From Candidatus Sediminicultor secundus (lineage in GTDB: Bacteria > Atribacterota > JS1 > SB-45 > 34-128): DNA of 5,964 bases. The stretch spans positions 1 to 5,964 of the forward strand of contig NCRO01000458.1 of NCBI GenBank assembly GCA_002849045.2, given 5' to 3'. The notes below the pieces were generated by a model. It was not told where the DNA came from. It was given only the letters and a program-made list of their open reading frames with translations, and searched no databases. Below are positions 96-5,725 of this stretch, one piece after another. Position 1 is the first letter of the stretch. Each line of letters begins with the position of its first letter. A program made the position numbers and the translations under genes.

Positions 96-120
96 TGTAG
101 GGGCACGATGCATCGTGCCC
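96..120. repeat. Short palindromic repeat, TGTAGGGGC type, copy 2 (perfect palindrome)
   Basis: TGTAG at 96-100 is followed by GGGCACGATGCATCGTGCCC (101-120), a perfect 20-base palindrome. It belongs to the same family as the repeat at 28-56. It is followed by a short linker that runs into the longer hairpin repeat starting at 135. It lies in non-coding DNA upstream of the LolA-like gene. Confidence 0.8.
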
Positions 121-134
121 GTAAGAAATTAAGA

Positions 135-251: not shown

Positions 252-1007
252 ATGAAAAAAATTAAAGGGCTTTTACTGATAGGAATAATAATGTCGATTT
301 TATTTTCAAGTTTAATCATAACAACTGCTGCAGAAATGACTGCCGAAGAAATTATCAACAAGAGAGATGATAATGAATATTTTGATACAGCTCAAATGGA
401 AGCGGAAATGATAATTGTTAGCGGAGGTCGTAAAATAACTAAAACTATGTTTATTTTAAGCGATAAAAGAAATGCTCTTGTAGAGTTTACGAATCCAGTA
501 GATAGAGGAACAAAATTCCTTAAGAGAGAAGGTGACCTATGGATGTTCTTCCCTGATGCCGAAGAAATCATCAAAATATCCGGTCATATGTTGAACCAGG
601 GGATGATGGGGAGCGATTTTTCCTATCAAGATATAATGGAATCAGACAAATTAACCGATCTATATGATTTTAAAATTATCGGTGAAGAAGAAATTGAGGG
701 ACGTCTTTGTTATGTTCTTGAAGGTATTGCCAGAGAAGGGGTTAAAGTTTCCTATTATCGTCGAGTAAGCTGGATAGACAAAGAGAGGTTTATCGGTCTT
801 AAAGAAGAATTATATACTAAAAGCGGCCGTATATTAAAAGAAACCAAAGTCAACAAAATAGAAGAGATTGAAGGGCGCTGGATTCCTATTGATTCGGTTA
901 TGGAGAATAAACTAAGAAAAAATACTTACACCGGATTTAAAATTACTAATATAGATTTTAATCCGGAAATTCCCGAAGGAACATTCACTTTGCAGAATTT
1001 GAGGTAA
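252..1007 (+). CDS. LolA-like outer-membrane lipoprotein-sorting family protein
   Basis: This 251-residue protein is secreted and probably acts in the periplasm. It has a clear signal peptide: a KKIK basic start, a hydrophobic core at about residues 7-25, and likely cleavage after AA at 26-27. There is no lipobox Cys. The mature part matches my knowledge of the 'outer membrane lipoprotein-sorting protein' family (LolA-like fold, COG2834 type): GTKFLKR (86-92), LWMFFP (96-101) and GMMGSDFSY (117-125) are family hallmarks. The fold binds acyl chains or lipids, and members often sit beside RND/MMPL exporters and an outer-membrane barrel, so a lipid-shuttle role is inferred. The ATG at 252 is chosen because AAAGGGG ends 8 bases upstream. 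An in-frame TTG at 234 would put this ribosome site inside the gene. Dispersed repeats flank it on both sides. It may be co-transcribed with the barrel gene, but 292 bases of repeat-rich DNA separate them. Confidence 0.85.
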   Translation: MKKIKGLLLIGIIMSILFSSLIITTAAEMTAEEIINKRDDNEYFDTAQMEAEMIIVSGGRKITKTMFILSDKRNALVEFTNPVDRGTKFLKREGDLWMFFPDAEEIIKISGHMLNQGMMGSDFSYQDIMESDKLTDLYDFKIIGEEEIEGRLCYVLEGIAREGVKVSYYRRVSWIDKERFIGLKEELYTKSGRILKETKVNKIEEIEGRWIPIDSVMENKLRKNTYTGFKITNIDFNPEIPEGTFTLQNLR

Positions 1008-1059
1008 CTTCAAGAAAGATAGACATCGGTTAGTTTTTTAAACAAACAAGATCAAAAAT

Positions 1060-1084
1060 TGTAGGGGCTCGATTCATCGAACCC
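1060..1084. repeat. Short palindromic repeat, TGTAGGGGC type, copy 3
   Basis: TGTAG (1060-1064) is followed by GGGCTCGAT (1065-1073) and ATCGAACCC (1076-1084). The arms pair with one C/A mismatch, so this is a slightly decayed copy of the family seen at 96-120. It opens the non-coding 292-base gap between the LolA-like gene and the barrel gene. That gap is almost filled by repeats up to 1249. Confidence 0.7.
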
Positions 1085-1095
1085 GCAAATCAAGA

Positions 1096-1120
1096 TGTAG
1101 GAGCATATTGTATAAACCCT
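1096..1120. repeat. Degenerate short palindromic repeat, copy 4
   Basis: It begins TGTAGGAGC and runs to AACCCT, which follows the outline of the TGTAGGGGC repeats. The inner arms no longer pair well. It sits in the same place relative to its neighbours as the second short repeat does upstream of the LolA-like gene, which is the main reason to count it as a decayed copy. Confidence 0.4.
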
Positions 1121-1131
1121 CATAATAAATA

Positions 1132-1197
1132 TCATTACGAGAAGTGAAACAACAAAGCAATCTAATGCTTGAGATTACTTTGCTCCGCCCGTAATGA
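1132..1197. repeat. Long hairpin repeat, TCATTACG-end variant, copy 2
   Basis: TCATTACG (1132-1139) and CGTAATGA (1190-1197) are perfect inverted ends. Inside, AAAGCAATCT (1154-1163) pairs with AGATTACTTT (1172-1181) with one mismatch. Size, internal GCAATC core and layout match the element at 135-214. The ends have A where copy 1 has G (CATTACG against CATTGCG), and both arms carry the matching change. This is the same family with a compensated variant end. Confidence 0.75.
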
Positions 1198-1213
1198 CAG
1201 ATTAGTATCTAAA

Positions 1214-1249
1214 TGTCATTGCGAGCGACTGTAGGGAGCGCGGCAATCT
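1214..1249 (+). repeat. Solo left arm of the TGTCATTGCGAG repeat, copy 3
   Basis: TGTCATTGCGAG (1214-1225) is identical to the left end of the repeat at 135-146. It is followed by a GCGCGGCAATCT segment like the inner left arm of the family. No matching right arm is found before the barrel gene starts at 1300. This is half an element, which suggests truncation or recombination between copies. The remaining bases to 1299 are AT-rich and hold the ribosome site of the barrel gene. I see no convincing promoter there. Confidence 0.65.
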
Positions 1250-1299
1250 GAATTTACCTTTTAAGAAAATATAAAAATTATTTAGATAAGGAAATAAAA

Positions 1300-2415
1300 T
1301 TGATAATAAAAAAATATTTTAACATTGCCATTCTATTTATGATTTTTTTTCTCTTAGGGTCAATTCCAATTTCTGCCAAGGTTGATATTGGCGGTGAGCT
1401 CGCTGCTTCTCTAATAAACATCATCGATAATGAAGGAAATATTTCTAGTTATCTGCAGGAAAGTTTGGATTTAGAATTATTCTTACCGACTATTAGTAAT
1501 ACTCAGGCTAAATTCGAAATATATTTATTTAATAATCCTATGAGTGGAGGATTTGATTATTTAATTAAAAAACTTTATCTTAAACATAAATTTGAGAAAT
1601 TACATTTAACCCTGGGTCGTCAGCCCATATCCTGGTCTTTCGGCTCGATGCTCAATCCGGTTGATTTTACTTTAGGATCGATGGTAATGGATGAAGAGAC
1701 CGGTGCCAAATACCAGGATGCGATAGAAGCCTATATCCCTCTAAATTGGAATTCAAGTATATCATTGGTTGCTGCTTTTCCTAAAGGTAGCCAGGATATT
1801 AAATGGGGCTTGAGAGGCAGGACAATGATTAAAGGATATGACCTTACCCTGAATTATGTCAGAGAACCAGAAATAGATTTTATGGGAACTATTATCCCGG
1901 CCAGCCAGAGAATAGGTTTTACTGCAAAAGGAGATTTAGGACCAATAGGAGTATATGGAGCCCTGGGATATTATTTTAAAGATAATGATGATGGTGATTT
2001 AGCTTATCTAATCGGTGGTGATTATAGTTATTTTTTTGAAGCGGGGAATAATATATATTTTCAGTTAGAATATTTATATATGAAAAAAGATAATCTGTCC
2101 TCTATTTTGGGCCCTTTTTTTGCAGGAAATGTCACCAACAATTTAAATGAAAATATAGGGTTAATTTTGGGTATGGCAAATTATGGAATTGATGAATTTT
2201 CTCAAATTAATTTAATGGCTATTTCCAGTTTAAATGATGGGAGTATAATTATTATACCCGGATATCATAATCAATTAAGCAATAATCTAAGTCTTAATCT
2301 TAGCACCGCAATTTATTTTGGCAAAGAAGATACTCTCTTTAGTTCGAATGTTTCTGAGGGAGCTCAACAGAAGCCCAAAGGAATGATTAGTATCGGTTTA
2401 ACCTATTCTTTTTAA
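1300..2415 (+). CDS. Secreted outer-membrane beta-barrel (porin-like) protein
   Basis: This 371-residue protein is predicted to be an outer-membrane barrel. It has a signal peptide (IIKK start, hydrophobic core at about residues 8-23, likely cleavage after SA at 25-26). It has no cysteine, alternating short hydrophobic and polar stretches typical of beta strands, and a C-terminal GLTYSF ending in Phe, as expected for recognition by the BAM machinery. The segment LGRQPISWSFGSMLNPVDF (105-123) resembles a signature of DUF1302-like and related barrel proteins that often accompany RND exporters and LolA-like proteins. The exact family and substrate are not recognised. The start is a TTG at 1300 with AAGGAAA at 1288-1294. 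The next Met (residue 14) lies inside the hydrophobic core and would lose the basic n-region. It lies downstream of the LolA-like gene in the same direction and converges on the regulator gene with a 22-base gap. Confidence 0.75.
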   Translation: MIIKKYFNIAILFMIFFLLGSIPISAKVDIGGELAASLINIIDNEGNISSYLQESLDLELFLPTISNTQAKFEIYLFNNPMSGGFDYLIKKLYLKHKFEKLHLTLGRQPISWSFGSMLNPVDFTLGSMVMDEETGAKYQDAIEAYIPLNWNSSISLVAAFPKGSQDIKWGLRGRTMIKGYDLTLNYVREPEIDFMGTIIPASQRIGFTAKGDLGPIGVYGALGYYFKDNDDGDLAYLIGGDYSYFFEAGNNIYFQLEYLYMKKDNLSSILGPFFAGNVTNNLNENIGLILGMANYGIDEFSQINLMAISSLNDGSIIIIPGYHNQLSNNLSLNLSTAIYFGKEDTLFSSNVSEGAQQKPKGMISIGLTYSF

Positions 2416-2437
2416 AAGAATCTTTATATTTAACTGG

Positions 2438-3109
2438 CTAAAGTTTATTCAAAGCTGCCATATCCTTAATTATAATAACCTCTCTGTTAAAATCAATAAT
2501 CCCCGTATCTCTCATTTTAATTAGCTCTCTTGACAAGGAAGGCCGCTGAATTCCCATATGTTCGGCCATCTCTTTTCTGGAGAGGGATACTTTTATAATA
2601 TTACTTCCTTGTTTCTTATATTCTTCCATCAGAAAATTTCCTATTTTTTGTCTGATGCTTTCCAGGGAAAGCATCTTGACTTTTTTGTTTAACATCAATA
2701 ATTTATTGGAAAGTAGTTCTAAAAAATTCTCCATAAACTTATGGCAATTGGTTAAACAGTTGATTAAATCCTCTTTCTTTATAAACATAATCTTTGAATC
2801 TCTAATTGCCCCGATAGTAGCCGGAAATTTATTCATCCTAGAAAAAATAACGGCTTCTCCGAAGATTTCCACTGGCCTTAATTGGGAAAAGGTCAACAAT
2901 TTACCAGACGGATAGAAGGTTTGCACCTCCAATAGACCTTCCAGCAAAATTCCCAATTCTTCACAATTGCTGCCTTCGATAACTACCATATTTCCCTTAG
3001 GATATTTTTTTATGGTATAATTAGGCGTATTCAAAAAATTAGAAATATCTTCACACTTCATATCCTTAAATAAAATGCACCTTTTTAAATTATCTGATAA
3101 AACATTCAT
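2438..3109 (-). CDS. Crp/Fnr-family transcriptional regulator, probably HcpR-like
   Basis: This 223-residue regulator has the Crp/Fnr layout. An N-terminal cyclic-nucleotide-type beta roll includes YPKGNMVVIEG (about 36-46) and EIFGEAVIFS (about 81-90). A long dimer helix follows, then a C-terminal winged helix-turn-helix (about 176-207) with recognition helix IQRPSLSRELIKM (about 187-199). The Ser-Arg pair is placed as in FNR. The cysteines (11, 19, 49, 118, 122) do not reproduce the FNR N-terminal cluster set, so oxygen sensing by a [4Fe-4S] cluster is not supported. Heme-based NO sensing, as known for some HcpR proteins, is possible but not visible in sequence. The start at 3109 is chosen because GGAGG lies 8 bases upstream. 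An ATG at 3142 would overlap the dyad and has no such site. It is divergent from the ferredoxin-hcp operon, which is the usual place for its regulator. The specific HcpR assignment comes from context. Confidence 0.85.
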   Translation of the reverse strand: MNVLSDNLKRCILFKDMKCEDISNFLNTPNYTIKKYPKGNMVVIEGSNCEELGILLEGLLEVQTFYPSGKLLTFSQLRPVEIFGEAVIFSRMNKFPATIGAIRDSKIMFIKKEDLINCLTNCHKFMENFLELLSNKLLMLNKKVKMLSLESIRQKIGNFLMEEYKKQGSNIIKVSLSRKEMAEHMGIQRPSLSRELIKMRDTGIIDFNREVIIIKDMAALNKL

Positions 3110-3135
3110 ATTTAAAACCTCCGAAGAATAAATCG

Positions 3136-3149
3136 GTAACATCGGTTAC
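3136..3149. promoter_or_regulatory. Candidate operator: GTAAC-N4-GTTAC dyad (FNR-type geometry)
   Basis: GTAAC (3136-3140) and GTTAC (3145-3149) are perfect inverted repeats around the 4-base spacer ATCG. The 5-4-5 layout is that of an FNR box (TTGAT-N4-ATCAA), with different half-site bases. It lies in the divergent region between a Crp/Fnr regulator and the ferredoxin-hcp operon. Its centre (3142.5) is 41.5 bases upstream of the start predicted for the + strand operon. I infer that the neighbouring regulator binds here. No second copy was seen in the other intergenic regions of the window. Confidence 0.65.
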
Positions 3150-3184
3150 ATACTTTCTTTTCTTATGATAATATAATAATTCCG
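3149..3184 (+). promoter_or_regulatory. Predicted activator-dependent promoter of the ferredoxin-hcp operon
   Basis: A perfect TATAAT -10 box lies at 3172-3177, predicting a start at about 3184. At a 17-base spacing the -35 position (3149-3154, CATACT) bears little resemblance to TTGACA. A strong -10 with a poor -35 and a dyad at -41.5 is the classic class II pattern for Crp/Fnr activation. The transcript would have a leader of about 90 bases before the ferredoxin start codon. Confidence 0.55.
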
Positions 3185-3193
3185 AAAAAACAA
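3158..3193 (-). promoter_or_regulatory. Candidate promoter of the Crp/Fnr regulator gene
   Basis: On the minus strand, TTGTTT (3193-3188) and TATCAT (3170-3165) are 17 bases apart and predict a start near 3158. The -10 matches the consensus at 5 of 6 positions, the -35 at only 3 of 6. It overlaps the predicted + strand promoter. The GTAAC dyad would lie at about +10 to +23, where a bound regulator could block its own transcription. The whole reading is weak. Confidence 0.35.
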
Positions 3194-3197
3194 GCGC

Positions 3198-3260
3198 ATG
3201 AAGACGGCGAAAATGGCTGAGATTGTTTTTAGAATATTATTTATGCGGTTTAAAAAATAA
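3198..3260 (+). CDS. Possible 20-codon leader ORF upstream of the ferredoxin gene
   Basis: An ATG at 3198 opens a 20-codon frame ending in TAA at 3258-3260. The peptide begins MKTAKMAEIV and ends FMRFKK, with a hydrophobic middle and a basic tail. Its stop codon overlaps the AAGGAG ribosome site (3259-3264) of the ferredoxin gene, an arrangement that could couple translation. It would lie wholly inside the predicted leader transcript. No ribosome site is visible ahead of it, and a frame this short can arise by chance, so it may not be a gene. Confidence 0.2.
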   Translation: MKTAKMAEIVFRILFMRFKK

Positions 3261-3273
3261 GGAGAAGATTATC

Positions 3274-4020
3274 ATGAAAAGAAAGATAATTAAAATTAAT
3301 AAAGAACTATGTAATGGTTGTGGCTTATGTGTCGAGGCCTGTCATGAAGGGGCTATTCAGATGGTAGACGGTAAAGCTCAATTGGTGAGTGACCAGTACT
3401 GTGATGGTTTGGGAAATTGTCTGCCCGCTTGTCCTGCCGGAGCAATCGAAATTATTGAAAGAGAAGCTAACCCCTACAACCAAAAGGCAGTAGAGGAGAA
3501 GCACAAGAGTGAGCAGAAACAAAAACAGGAAATGCCGGTCTGTGCCTGTGCAGGCGCGATGCCCCGAAACATTGCTCGGGAGAAAGCTGTTTCAAAACCA
3601 ACACAAGATACTAAAGAAATAAATAACAATCTAAGCGACATTCGACAGCAACCCTCTGAACTTCAAAATTGGCCGGTTCAGCTTAAATTAATAAATCCCG
3701 GGTCAGACTATCTAAACAATTCCGATATTTTAGTAATGGCTGATTGCGTGGCCTATGCCTACGGAAACGTCCATCAGGATTTTATAAAAGACCGTATTAC
3801 TATTATCGGTTGTCCCAAATTGGATGATAATGAATATTATACTGAAAAGCTTACCGAAATCTTTCAGAGAAACAGCATCAAGAGTATAACGGTAGTCCGG
3901 ATGGAGGTCCCCTGTTGTGGCGGCCTATTCCAAGCGGTCAAGACCGCTATGTTAAAGTCAGAGACTATTGTCCCTTATAAAGAGGTAATTATAGGGATAA
4001 ATGGCGAAGTTAAACAGTAA
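3274..4020 (+). CDS. Hcp-associated 4Fe-4S ferredoxin-like protein with Cys-rich C-terminal domain
   Basis: This 248-residue cytoplasmic iron-sulfur protein is probably the electron donor to Hcp. Residues 1-60 form a ferredoxin domain. The first motif is complete (C13, C16, C19, C23). The second is C43-x5-C49-x3-C53-P, with Leu46 where the second Cys of CxxCxxC would be. A charged Lys/Glu/Gln-rich linker (about 63-87) leads to a CAC motif (C90, C92), then a conserved-looking domain with WPVQLKLINP (133-142), ADC (C158), GCPKLDD (C180) and RMEVPCCGG (C214, C215). I recognise this architecture from ferredoxin-family proteins encoded beside hcp in strict anaerobes, but the C-terminal domain's function is unknown to me. 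The ATG at 3274 has AAGGAG 9 bases upstream. An upstream in-frame TTG at 3223 adds 17 residues without a ribosome site. The gap to hcp is 49 bases on the same strand, so co-transcription is expected. Confidence 0.85.
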   Translation: MKRKIIKINKELCNGCGLCVEACHEGAIQMVDGKAQLVSDQYCDGLGNCLPACPAGAIEIIEREANPYNQKAVEEKHKSEQKQKQEMPVCACAGAMPRNIAREKAVSKPTQDTKEINNNLSDIRQQPSELQNWPVQLKLINPGSDYLNNSDILVMADCVAYAYGNVHQDFIKDRITIIGCPKLDDNEYYTEKLTEIFQRNSIKSITVVRMEVPCCGGLFQAVKTAMLKSETIVPYKEVIIGINGEVKQ

Positions 4021-4069: not shown

Positions 4070-5725
4070 ATGACCGATAAAATGTTTTGTTATCAATGCC
4101 AGGAGACTGCCAAGGGAAGCGGATGTACTGTTCGGGGTGTTTGTGGAAAGACGGATGATGTAGCCCGATTACAAGACTTGTTAATTTATCTGCTAAAGGG
4201 AATTTCATTTTATAGCTCAAAAGCAAGAGAATTGGGCGTGACTTCTAAAAAAGTAGATAAATTCCTCTTCGACGGCCTGTTTTCTACTATTACCAATGCT
4301 AATTTTGACCGAAGTGATTTTACAGCCCGGATTAGAGAAGGATTAAAGTTAAAAGACGAAGCGAAAGATATGTTAGAAAAAGCCGAAGGAGATATCGGAG
4401 GCAAAGTTCCTGAAGCAGCAATCTGGCAAGCTGATACCGAAGAAGAATTTGAAGAGAAGGCCAAACAAGTAGGAGTTTTAAGTACTGAAAATGAAGATGT
4501 CAGGTCTTTAAGAGGACTAATTATTTACGGAGCAAAAGGGGTAGCAGCCTATGCTACCCATGCCCGGAATTTAGGTTATGAAGATGAAAAGATAATTGAG
4601 TTCATCGAAAAAGCCCTAACCGCTACCACTAATGATAGTCTCTCTGTTGATGATTTAGTCGGCTTGGTTTTAGAGTGTGGTAAATTTGGAGTAGAAGCTA
4701 TGGCTTTACTGGATAAAGCCAATACTTCCAGTTATGGGAATCCGGAGATAACTAAAGTCAATATCGGAGTCAGAAATAATCCGGCAATTCTAATCAGTGG
4801 CCATGACTTGAAGGACATGGAAGAACTATTGAAACAGACCGAGGGGAGCGGAGTAGATGTATACACTCATGGTGAAATGCTCCCTGCCAACTATTATCCG
4901 GCCTTTAAAAAGTATTCCCATTTTGTAGGTAATTATGGGAACGCCTGGTGGAAACAGAAAGAAGAGATTGAAAGTTTTAATGGCCCGGTTCTCTTTACTA
5001 CTAATTGTATTGTTCCCCCTAAAGATTCTTACAAAGACAGGGTGTACACCACCGGTGTTGTGGGATTTCCCGGAGTAAAACATATTCCGGAAGCAGAAGA
5101 GGGGAAAGAAAAAGATTTCTCTAAGATTATAGCTCATGCCAAAAAATGCAAACCACCGGTAGAGATAGAAAAGGGAGAGATTATCGGAGGATTTGCTCAC
5201 AATACGGTAATCGGACTGGCTGATAAGGTAGTTGATGCTGTAAAATCCGGAGCTATTAAGAGATTTTTTGTTATGGCCGGTTGTGACGGAAGAATGAAAA
5301 ATCGTGAATACTATACAGAATTTGCCCGGGCTTTACCCAAAGATACTATAATATTAACTGCCGGATGTGCCAAATACAGATATAACAAGCTTGATTTGGG
5401 TGATATAAGAGGCATTCCCAGAGTCTTAGATGCTGGCCAGTGTAATGACTCCTATTCTCTGGTAGTAATAGCCTTAAAATTAAAGGAAATATTTAAATTA
5501 GATGACATAAATAAACTTCCCATCTCCTACAATATAGCCTGGTATGAGCAAAAAGCCGTAATAGTCCTATTGGCTCTACTCTATTTAGGAGTGAAAAATA
5601 TCCATTTAGGGCCAACTTTACCGGCATTCTTATCCCCGAACGTGATAAAAGTTCTGGTGGAAAAATTCGGCATCGCCGGAATAACCGATGTGCAGAATGA
5701 CCTTAAGATATTCTTAGGCGCATAA
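4070..5725 (+). CDS. hcp: Hydroxylamine reductase / hybrid cluster protein (class I Hcp, prismane protein)
   Basis: This 551-residue cytoplasmic enzyme carries a cubane [4Fe-4S] and the hybrid Fe-S-O cluster. The family reduces hydroxylamine to ammonia in vitro and is widely regarded as an NO reductase and nitrosative-stress protein in anaerobes. The N-terminal cysteines C7-x2-C10-x8-C19-x5-C25 have the class I spacing of Desulfovibrio Hcp, with no class III deletion. By alignment from memory to Desulfovibrio Hcp, every hybrid-cluster ligand is present: H245, E269, C313, C405 (the persulfide Cys, in AGCDGR), C433 (AGCAKY), C458 (GQCND) and E493 (WYEQK). Length is normal for class I and the protein looks intact. 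AAAGGAGG lies 8 bases before the ATG. Relative to the Desulfovibrio form it has four extra N-terminal residues. No HCR-type reductase is present, so the upstream ferredoxin-like protein is the likely electron donor. A strong terminator follows. Confidence 0.97.

What the first reader, a model, noticed from the sequence alone, without database searches (positions are those of the whole stretch)
3136..3184. Perfect 5-4-5 dyad centred at -41.5 of a TATAAT promoter driving the ferredoxin-hcp operon
Seen directly: GTAAC-ATCG-GTTAC at 3136-3149 and TATAAT at 3172-3177 with no good -35. Counting +1 as 7 bases past the -10 gives 3184, so the dyad centre is exactly -41.5. Known: this is the class II site position for Crp/Fnr activators, and FNR boxes are 5-4-5 dyads. 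Inference: the divergent regulator activates ferredoxin-hcp through a half-site GTAAC that differs from FNR (TTGAT) and CRP (TGTGA).
Basis: partly seen in the sequence, partly recalled or inferred. Interest (0 to 1): 0.75.

Follow-up and report, generated by a model that had tools for sequence, protein, structure and literature searches.

The report
HcpR2 activator site before ferredoxin-hcp
The mirror-image DNA box in this anaerobic bacterium matches the already published binding site of the stress regulator HcpR, and it sits at the position where such regulators usually switch on a promoter, so the find is ordinary, though its fixed spacing to the promoter turns up again in distant bacteria.

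Summary
GTAAC-ATCG-GTTAC lies at 3136-3149, TATAAT at 3172-3177, no -35 matches well, and the implied dyad centre is -41.5. The half-site is not new: GTAACnnnnGTTAC was published in 2005 as the HcpR2 motif upstream of hcp (PMC1274295, passages read). The divergent regulator has the recognition-helix pair (R, P) which that paper ties to the motif.

What the comparison adds is the geometry. In 9 of 9 exact dyads assigned to such target genes (the window plus 8 sites in Atribacterota genomes) a TAnnnT hexamer starts exactly 22 nt after the dyad. Away from such genes this holds in 1 of 86 orientations. In named records, 7 of 13 fetched hcp loci carry the exact dyad; 6 of those 7 have the same spacing, and one has 23. 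This fits class II activation and argues against a plain repressor.

In Atribacterota the site also precedes ferredoxin-flavodiiron NO reductase (G041) and msrAB (G038). Not shown: binding, transcription start, the signal. The Met68 haem ligand of P. gingivalis HcpR is not conserved here (Thr64). Verdict: new member of a known kind.

The parts
3136..3149 (.). 5-4-5 dyad GTAAC-ATCG-GTTAC, HcpR2-type operator
   Evidence: exact match; published consensus GTAACnnnnGTTAC; invariant in the 4 orthologous regions aligned
3172..3177 (+). -10 hexamer TATAAT of the ferredoxin-hcp promoter, 22 nt after the dyad
   Evidence: sequence; TAnnnT at this gap in 9 of 9 exact Atribacterota target-assigned sites and 6 of 7 external ones
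3184..3184 (+). inferred transcription start, which puts the dyad centre at -41.5
   Evidence: inference from the -10 position; not mapped
2438..3109 (-). hcpR-type CRP/FNR regulator, 223 aa, recognition helix GIQRPSLSR; start ATG at 3109-3107 with GGAGG at 3122-3118
   Evidence: Pfam HTH_Crp_2 and cNMP_binding; R189-P190. The ATG at 3142 offered by the ORF listing lies inside the dyad; the choice of 3109 is my reading
3165..3170 (-). possible hcpR -10 (TATCAT read on the minus strand)
   Evidence: ATGATA is invariant in 4 orthologous regions; promoter function is inference
3274..4020 (+). ferredoxin-like protein (FrdX-type position), 248 aa; Shine-Dalgarno AAGGAG at 3259-3264
   Evidence: Fer4 families
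4070..5725 (+). hcp, hybrid cluster protein, 551 aa
   Evidence: PF03063; PRK05290 and TIGR01703 over cut-off

Best explanation
The dyad is the operator of the divergently encoded HcpR2-type CRP/FNR regulator. When activated, presumably by NO or nitrosative stress, a dimer binds GTAAC-N4-GTTAC centred at -41.5, overlapping the missing -35. From there it recruits sigma70-type RNA polymerase to the -10 at 3172-3177, turning on ferredoxin-hcp to reduce NO or related species. The same bound dimer lies between the hcpR start codon and its likely promoter, so it probably also limits hcpR expression. Shown here by sequence: the dyad, the -10 spacing and its conservation, the helix residues, and co-occurrence of regulator and site. 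Inferred: binding, activation, signal, autoregulation.
For: The motif equals the published HcpR2 consensus, and the regulator has R-P at the two specificity positions. The dyad is exact in the G001, G002 and G038 orthologous regions. TAnnnT at gap 22 occurs in 9 of 9 exact target-assigned sites; grouped to 6 distinct promoters, 6 of 6, with spacer identity 5-11 of 22 in 14 of 15 pairs (window against msrAB is 20 of 22). In 20,000 mononucleotide shuffles the best of gaps 0-60 reached 5 of 6 once and never 6. At the 43 other dyad places, 1 of 86 orientations has it. In named records, 7 of 13 fetched hcp loci have the exact dyad upstream, 6 of 7 with gap 22 and 1 with gap 23; 10,000 shuffles of those 7 never exceeded 5 at any gap 0-45. 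All 7 of 50 genomes with a regulator match have a dyad at a target or at the locus (G033, decayed, with 1 mismatch). Of the 29 genomes with a Prismane match but no regulator match, only G038 has an exact dyad near hcp (coordinates). In C. difficile hcpR is needed for NO induction of frdX-hcp (PMC12915319, abstract and passages), although that species is reported to use another motif.
Against: No start mapping or binding data. Other -10-like hexamers overlap; in the nine sites gaps 14 and 19 reach 4 of 9, against 1 and 2 of the 6 distinct promoters. No Atribacterota physiology was found: no paper in the library pairs Atribacter with HcpR or with hybrid cluster protein. The haem-ligand Met68 of P. 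gingivalis HcpR aligns with Thr64 here, so NO sensing is not carried over by that residue. Two regulators found in dyad-bearing organisms lack R-P (Prevotella K-F, Paraclostridium R-A), though they may not be the ones acting on hcp. No regulator match was listed for Haliovirga. No phylogenetic tree was built. Target assignment was by neighbouring gene, made with the hexamers in view; msrAB in particular was recognised after its TATAAT was seen, and without it the count is 5 of 5 distinct promoters. The neighbours of four other non-ORF dyads (L055, L057, L071, L077) were not examined. Many of these genomes are fragmented, so some promoters are off contig (for example G039).
Confidence: 0.87

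Rival explanations
1. The regulator is a repressor of ferredoxin-hcp: it binds the dyad in the absence of stress and NO releases it.
For: A derepression model is stated for the protein called HcpR2 in Desulfovibrio desulfuricans (PMC5701242, passages). The same paper also speaks of HcpR2 activating hcp and calls the mechanism undetermined, and its HcpR2 may not be the HcpR2 branch of the 2005 paper.
Against: The fixed -41.5 position over a missing -35 is the class II activator arrangement; a repressor would tolerate varied positions. In C. difficile, loss of hcpR abolishes induction rather than causing constitutive expression.
Confidence: 0.06
2. The dyad works mainly as an autoregulatory operator of hcpR, and ferredoxin-hcp is driven by another overlapping promoter (for instance TATGAT at 3164-3169 or GATAAT at 3167-3172).
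For: The dyad lies 26 nt from the hcpR start codon; ATGATA is invariant in orthologous regions.
Against: The overlapping hexamers are kept less well across distinct promoters than gap 22. In G042, G048 and G049 the dyad precedes hcp, with no divergent hcpR seen at the site (in G048 the contig ends about 190 bases beyond the dyad).
Confidence: 0.05
3. The dyad is a chance palindrome.
For: It also occurs in open reading frames and in raiA RNA of relatives; with up to 2 mismatches about 1.4 matches are expected in the window.
Against: Exact occurrence is about once per 1.7 Mb, yet it is found at hcp-type promoters in four phyla at a nearly fixed distance.
Confidence: 0.01

Closest known systems
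HcpR2 regulon, motif GTAACnnnnGTTAC (Rodionov et al. 2005, PMC1274295)
   Same: Same consensus, hcp and ferredoxin-like targets, R-P recognition helix, regulator gene beside the operon.
   Different: The host phylum (Atribacterota) is not named in the passages I read; the spacing to the -10 is not discussed in them; msrAB and ferredoxin-flavodiiron targets were not seen in them. Its supplementary site table was not looked at.
P. gingivalis HcpR (PMC12750200, passages; taken to be PDB 9day)
   Same: 9day is the best sequence match among solved structures; activates hcp; same family.
   Different: Its helix has R-Q and the 2005 paper reports a different motif for it; the haem ligand Met68 is Thr in the window protein.
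Class II CRP/FNR-dependent promoters (CRP, FNR; general knowledge)
   Same: Dyad centre at -41.5, weak or absent -35.
   Different: Half-site GTAAC with a 4-nt spacer, not TGTGA-N6 or TTGAT-N4.
C. jejuni NssR, TTAACnnnnGTTAA (mentioned in PMC1274295)
   Same: 5-4-5 dyad with an AAC/GTT core; CRP/FNR activator of a nitrosative response.
   Different: Different outer base, helix residues and target genes.

Membership tests
HcpR2 regulators | CRP/FNR two-domain architecture | tested here: met
   PF00027 and PF13545 over cut-off
HcpR2 regulators | R180-P181 pair in the recognition helix (E. coli CRP numbering) | tested here: met
   GIQRPSLSR; R189 and P190 are invariant in the 6 regulators aligned; definition
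HcpR2 regulators | Operator GTAACnnnnGTTAC upstream of hcp or its ferredoxin gene | tested here: met
HcpR2 regulators | Gene linked to hcp | tested here: met
   window layout; convergent with hcp in G042 and G049, and in G048 with the regulator split between frames
HcpR2 regulators | No FNR-type cysteine set | tested here: met
   No cysteine among the invariant columns of 6 regulators; the window protein itself has Cys11, Cys19, Cys49, Cys118 and Cys122, not shared by all
HcpR2 regulators | Placement on the HcpR2 branch of a tree | not tested
   Only a ranking of solved structures was made (9day, then 1o5l). That 1o5l is the T. maritima HcpR2 is recalled
P. gingivalis-type haem/NO-sensing HcpR | Met68 haem ligand | tested here: not met
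   Ungapped alignment puts Thr64 there; A, A, K, K and M in relatives L001, L002, L010, L011 and L014
Class II CRP/FNR-dependent promoter | Operator centre at -41.5 relative to the -10-inferred start | tested here: met
   9 of 9 exact Atribacterota target-assigned sites, 6 of 7 external
Class II CRP/FNR-dependent promoter | Poor -35 hexamer | tested here: met
   At most 3 of 6 matches at spacings 15-19 in 6 distinct promoters
Class II CRP/FNR-dependent promoter | Contact of the activator with RNA polymerase and activation in vivo | not testable with these tools
   needs experiment
FNR or CRP site | TTGAT-N4-ATCAA or TGTGA-N6-TCACA | tested here: not met
   sequence is GTAAC-N4-GTTAC

The most novel reading that the evidence does not exclude
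HcpR2 activators obey one rigid promoter rule in at least four phyla (perfect 5-4-5 dyad, 22 nt, TAnnnT, no -35). Because the rule fits in about 42 bp, it can be handed between NO- and oxidant-defence genes. In G038 a dyad and -10 flanked by a ferredoxin relic now sits before msrAB, and in G041, where no hcp was found, the same module sits before ferredoxin-flavodiiron NO reductase. In the window's clade the regulator does this with a sensor pocket that lacks the known Met haem ligand.
Probability: 0.5. Interest if true: 0.45.

Novelty: new member of a known kind. Interest (0 to 1): 0.3.

Why it matters
It places a predicted nitrosative-stress switch in Atribacterota and gives a testable 42-bp rule (dyad, 22 nt, TAnnnT) that separates likely HcpR2 targets from chance dyads: 9 of 9 target-assigned sites against 1 of 86 orientations elsewhere. 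It favours activation over repression for this regulator group. It is an incremental advance, not a new kind of system.

Tried and rejected
Rejected: the dyad as a general regulator's site. It is rarer than its reversed control, 55 against 131 in 50 genomes (my sums). Rejected: the ATG at 3142 as the hcpR start (inside the dyad; the Shine-Dalgarno favours 3109). Looked at and left: a leader hairpin in 3184-3290 (z -1.30, 25 of 200 shuffles fold as well). Three non-coding dyads without a nearby target turned out to lie in raiA RNA. Rfam found nothing in the window at gathering thresholds.

Limits: my pattern for the Hcp N-terminus failed on 20 of 30 loci, so those were judged only by comparing coordinates. 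In one search the helix pattern failed on most loci, and one search replaced it; still gave no match for the regulator annotated beside hcp in Parabacteroides (L142). Of 46 plasmid-collection records with hcp (40 listed) I fetched the first 13; 7 had the exact dyad. The 6 without were Ilyobacter, two Cetobacterium, Desulfosarcina, Pelobacter and Terrisporobacter. Of 8 regulator records I fetched 6 by that hit; Peptoclostridium (R-T helix) showed no dyad with up to 1 mismatch in its locus. The decayed G033 site (1 mismatch, TGCAAT at the -10) was left out of the 9; with it the count is 9 of 10. For G002 only the ferredoxin gene is on the contig, for G001 only the first piece of hcp, and in G038 the contig ends just beyond the dyad, so its regulator was not seen. 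The 52 dyad places are distinct by surrounding sequence; identical surroundings were merged. Literature searches for the position gave nothing on it in the rows listed, but one search matched 3,722 papers and listed 20.

Full report
What was checked. The window holds a divergent pair: a CRP/FNR-type regulator on the minus strand (2438-3109) and ferredoxin (3274-4020) followed by hcp (4070-5725) on the plus strand. The dyad GTAAC-ATCG-GTTAC is at 3136-3149 and is the only match in the window with up to 2 mismatches. TATAAT is at 3172-3177. With standard numbering +1 is 3184 and the dyad centre is -41.5.

Where it comes from. The closest loci found are two Atribacterota MAGs (L001, regulator 84% identical; L002, 81%). 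Both keep the dyad exactly, and a third (G038) keeps the region up to its contig edge. No whole genome is held for the window itself.

Already known part. Rodionov and colleagues (PMC1274295, passages read) derived GTAACnnnnGTTAC as the HcpR2 motif upstream of hcp and tied it to proline in place of Glu181 in the recognition helix. The window regulator reads GIQRPSLSR, and R and P are invariant in the six Atribacterota regulators aligned. The best solved-structure match is 9day. I take it to be P. gingivalis HcpR: PMC12750200 names 9day once (a count; I did not see the passage), and the residues around its Met68 mutagenesis primer match the chain.

New part: geometry. Across 50 genomes of the phylum the dyad occurs at 55 places (my sum). 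With the window there are 52 places distinct by surrounding sequence; 36 of the 52 lie inside reading frames of 80 or more residues and three in raiA RNA. Nine were assigned to plausible targets by neighbouring gene: the window; G001 and G002 (ferredoxin); G038 (ferredoxin-hcp, and msrAB); G048, G049 and G042 (hcp); G041 (ferredoxin-flavodiiron). All nine have TAnnnT starting exactly 22 nt after the dyad. Grouping orthologous promoters leaves six distinct ones, 6 of 6. No other gap between 8 and 45 exceeds 2 of 6; among all nine sites, gaps 14 and 19 reach 4 of 9. The spacers are 5-11 of 22 identical except for msrAB against the window (20 of 22). Mononucleotide shuffles gave at most 5 of 6 at any gap 0-60, once in 20,000. 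At the 43 other places, 1 of 86 orientations fits. The assignment was made with the hexamers in view, and the neighbours of four other dyads outside reading frames were not examined. For G042 the promoter lies on one contig and the full hcp on another; their ends carry the same gene start.

Outside the phylum. Among 46 plasmid-collection records with hcp I fetched the first 13; some, by their length, look like chromosomes filed as plasmids. Seven have the exact dyad, starting 69-269 nt before the hcp start: Haliovirga and Fusobacterium (Fusobacteriota); Acetoanaerobium, Paraclostridium and Roseburia (Bacillota); Parabacteroides and Prevotella (Bacteroidota). Six have TAnnnT at gap 22 and Parabacteroides at gap 23; shuffles of these seven never exceeded 5 at one gap in 10,000. 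Regulators found in Acetoanaerobium, Roseburia and Fusobacterium carry R-P, as does one on another Parabacteroides plasmid beside nrf genes. The one found in Prevotella has K-F and the one on the Paraclostridium plasmid R-A, which do not fit the helix rule; whether those act on hcp is unknown. No regulator match was listed for Haliovirga.

Co-occurrence and decay. A regulator match occurs in 7 of 50 genomes and a Prismane match in 33 of 50. Of the 29 with Prismane but no regulator match, only G038 has an exact dyad near hcp, and its contig ends just beyond the dyad (coordinates). Fragmentation limits this: the G039 contig, for example, begins inside the ferredoxin gene. In G034 and G035 the surrounding genes are the same, but hcpR, the dyad and the ferredoxin gene are absent from the locus and hcp follows the outer-membrane-like gene directly. 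In G033 the regulator has lost its middle, no Prismane protein is found, and the dyad has one mismatch and a poor -10. In G038 the msrAB gene is preceded by a 54-bp stretch 89% identical to the ferredoxin-hcp promoter and by a ferredoxin remnant. Of the 30 msr loci held, 5 could not be placed by my script; of the other 25 only G038 shows a dyad with 0 or 1 mismatch within up to 700 bases. The closest copy, in G001, is among the unplaced because the contig cuts it, so the target is seen in G038 only but not excluded in G001.

Mechanism. The position, the missing -35 and its persistence argue for class II activation. Repression, as modelled for the protein called HcpR2 in D. desulfuricans (PMC5701242, passages), does not explain a fixed distance. 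In C. difficile hcpR is required for NO induction of frdX-hcp (PMC12915319, abstract and passages). A 2026 preprint reports an RNA locus that cooperates with HcpR at the Bacteroides hcp promoter (PMC13370916, passages); I did not look for such an RNA here beyond the Rfam scan. Since the dyad lies 26 nt from the hcpR start codon, a bound dimer should also hinder hcpR transcription; the invariant ATGATA at 3165-3170 could be the hcpR -10 read on the other strand. That is inference.

What remains open. The signal is unproven. Met68, assigned as haem ligand in P. gingivalis HcpR (PMC12750200, passages), corresponds to Thr64 here and to A, A, K and K in L001, L002, L010 and L011; Met is present in the G041, Fusobacterium and Prevotella regulators. 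No start site or binding was measured. I found no paper in the library joining Atribacter with HcpR or with hybrid cluster protein. A search for any two of HcpR, methionine sulfoxide reductase and flavodiiron (22 papers, 15 listed, titles and counts only) showed HcpR together with flavodiiron in two Desulfovibrio papers and, among those listed, no bacterial paper pairing HcpR with methionine sulfoxide reductase. The 2005 paper's main text has no occurrence of class II, spacer or RNA polymerase; I did not look at its supplementary tables.

Noticed in passing
L076 (G038:C155) 1851-2135: An intact dyad and TATAAT followed by a broken ferredoxin remnant (matching residues 203-248) directly before msrAB: looks like promoter capture.
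   Followed up: partly
L014/L100 (G041:C276) 999-3168: A 28%-identical regulator with R-P helix and Met at the haem-ligand position, divergent from a ferredoxin and a flavodiiron protein scoring over the PRK11921 cut-off; no Prismane match in that genome.
   Followed up: partly
L101 (G034), L102 (G035): Same neighbouring genes but no hcpR, dyad or ferredoxin gene in the locus; hcp follows the outer-membrane-like gene directly.
   Followed up: partly
L013 (G033:C125) 1558-1952: Decayed locus: regulator missing its middle (residues 46-142), dyad with one mismatch, weak -10.
   Followed up: partly
window 3132-3149: The dyad is also an imperfect 9-bp direct repeat, ATCGGTAAC-ATCGGTTAC; the G041, G042, G048 and G049 sites lack it.
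   Followed up: no
window 96-124 and 1060-1088; 199-218 and 1210-1229: Short repeat pairs in intergenic DNA (GTAGGGGC... with an internal palindrome; CATTGCGAG...).
   Followed up: no
window 1300-2415: A 371-aa protein with no Pfam or NCBIfam match, beside a LolA-like protein (252-1007, PF17131); kept in synteny in G034 and G035; looks like an outer-membrane barrel (not tested).
   Followed up: no
L006, L064, L070: raiA RNA genes in Atribacterota carry an exact GTAAC-N4-GTTAC, a source of false hits for this motif.
   Followed up: yes
L012 (G048) 1465-2117: Regulator split between two frames although the dyad and -10 before hcp are intact; assembly error or recent loss.
   Followed up: no
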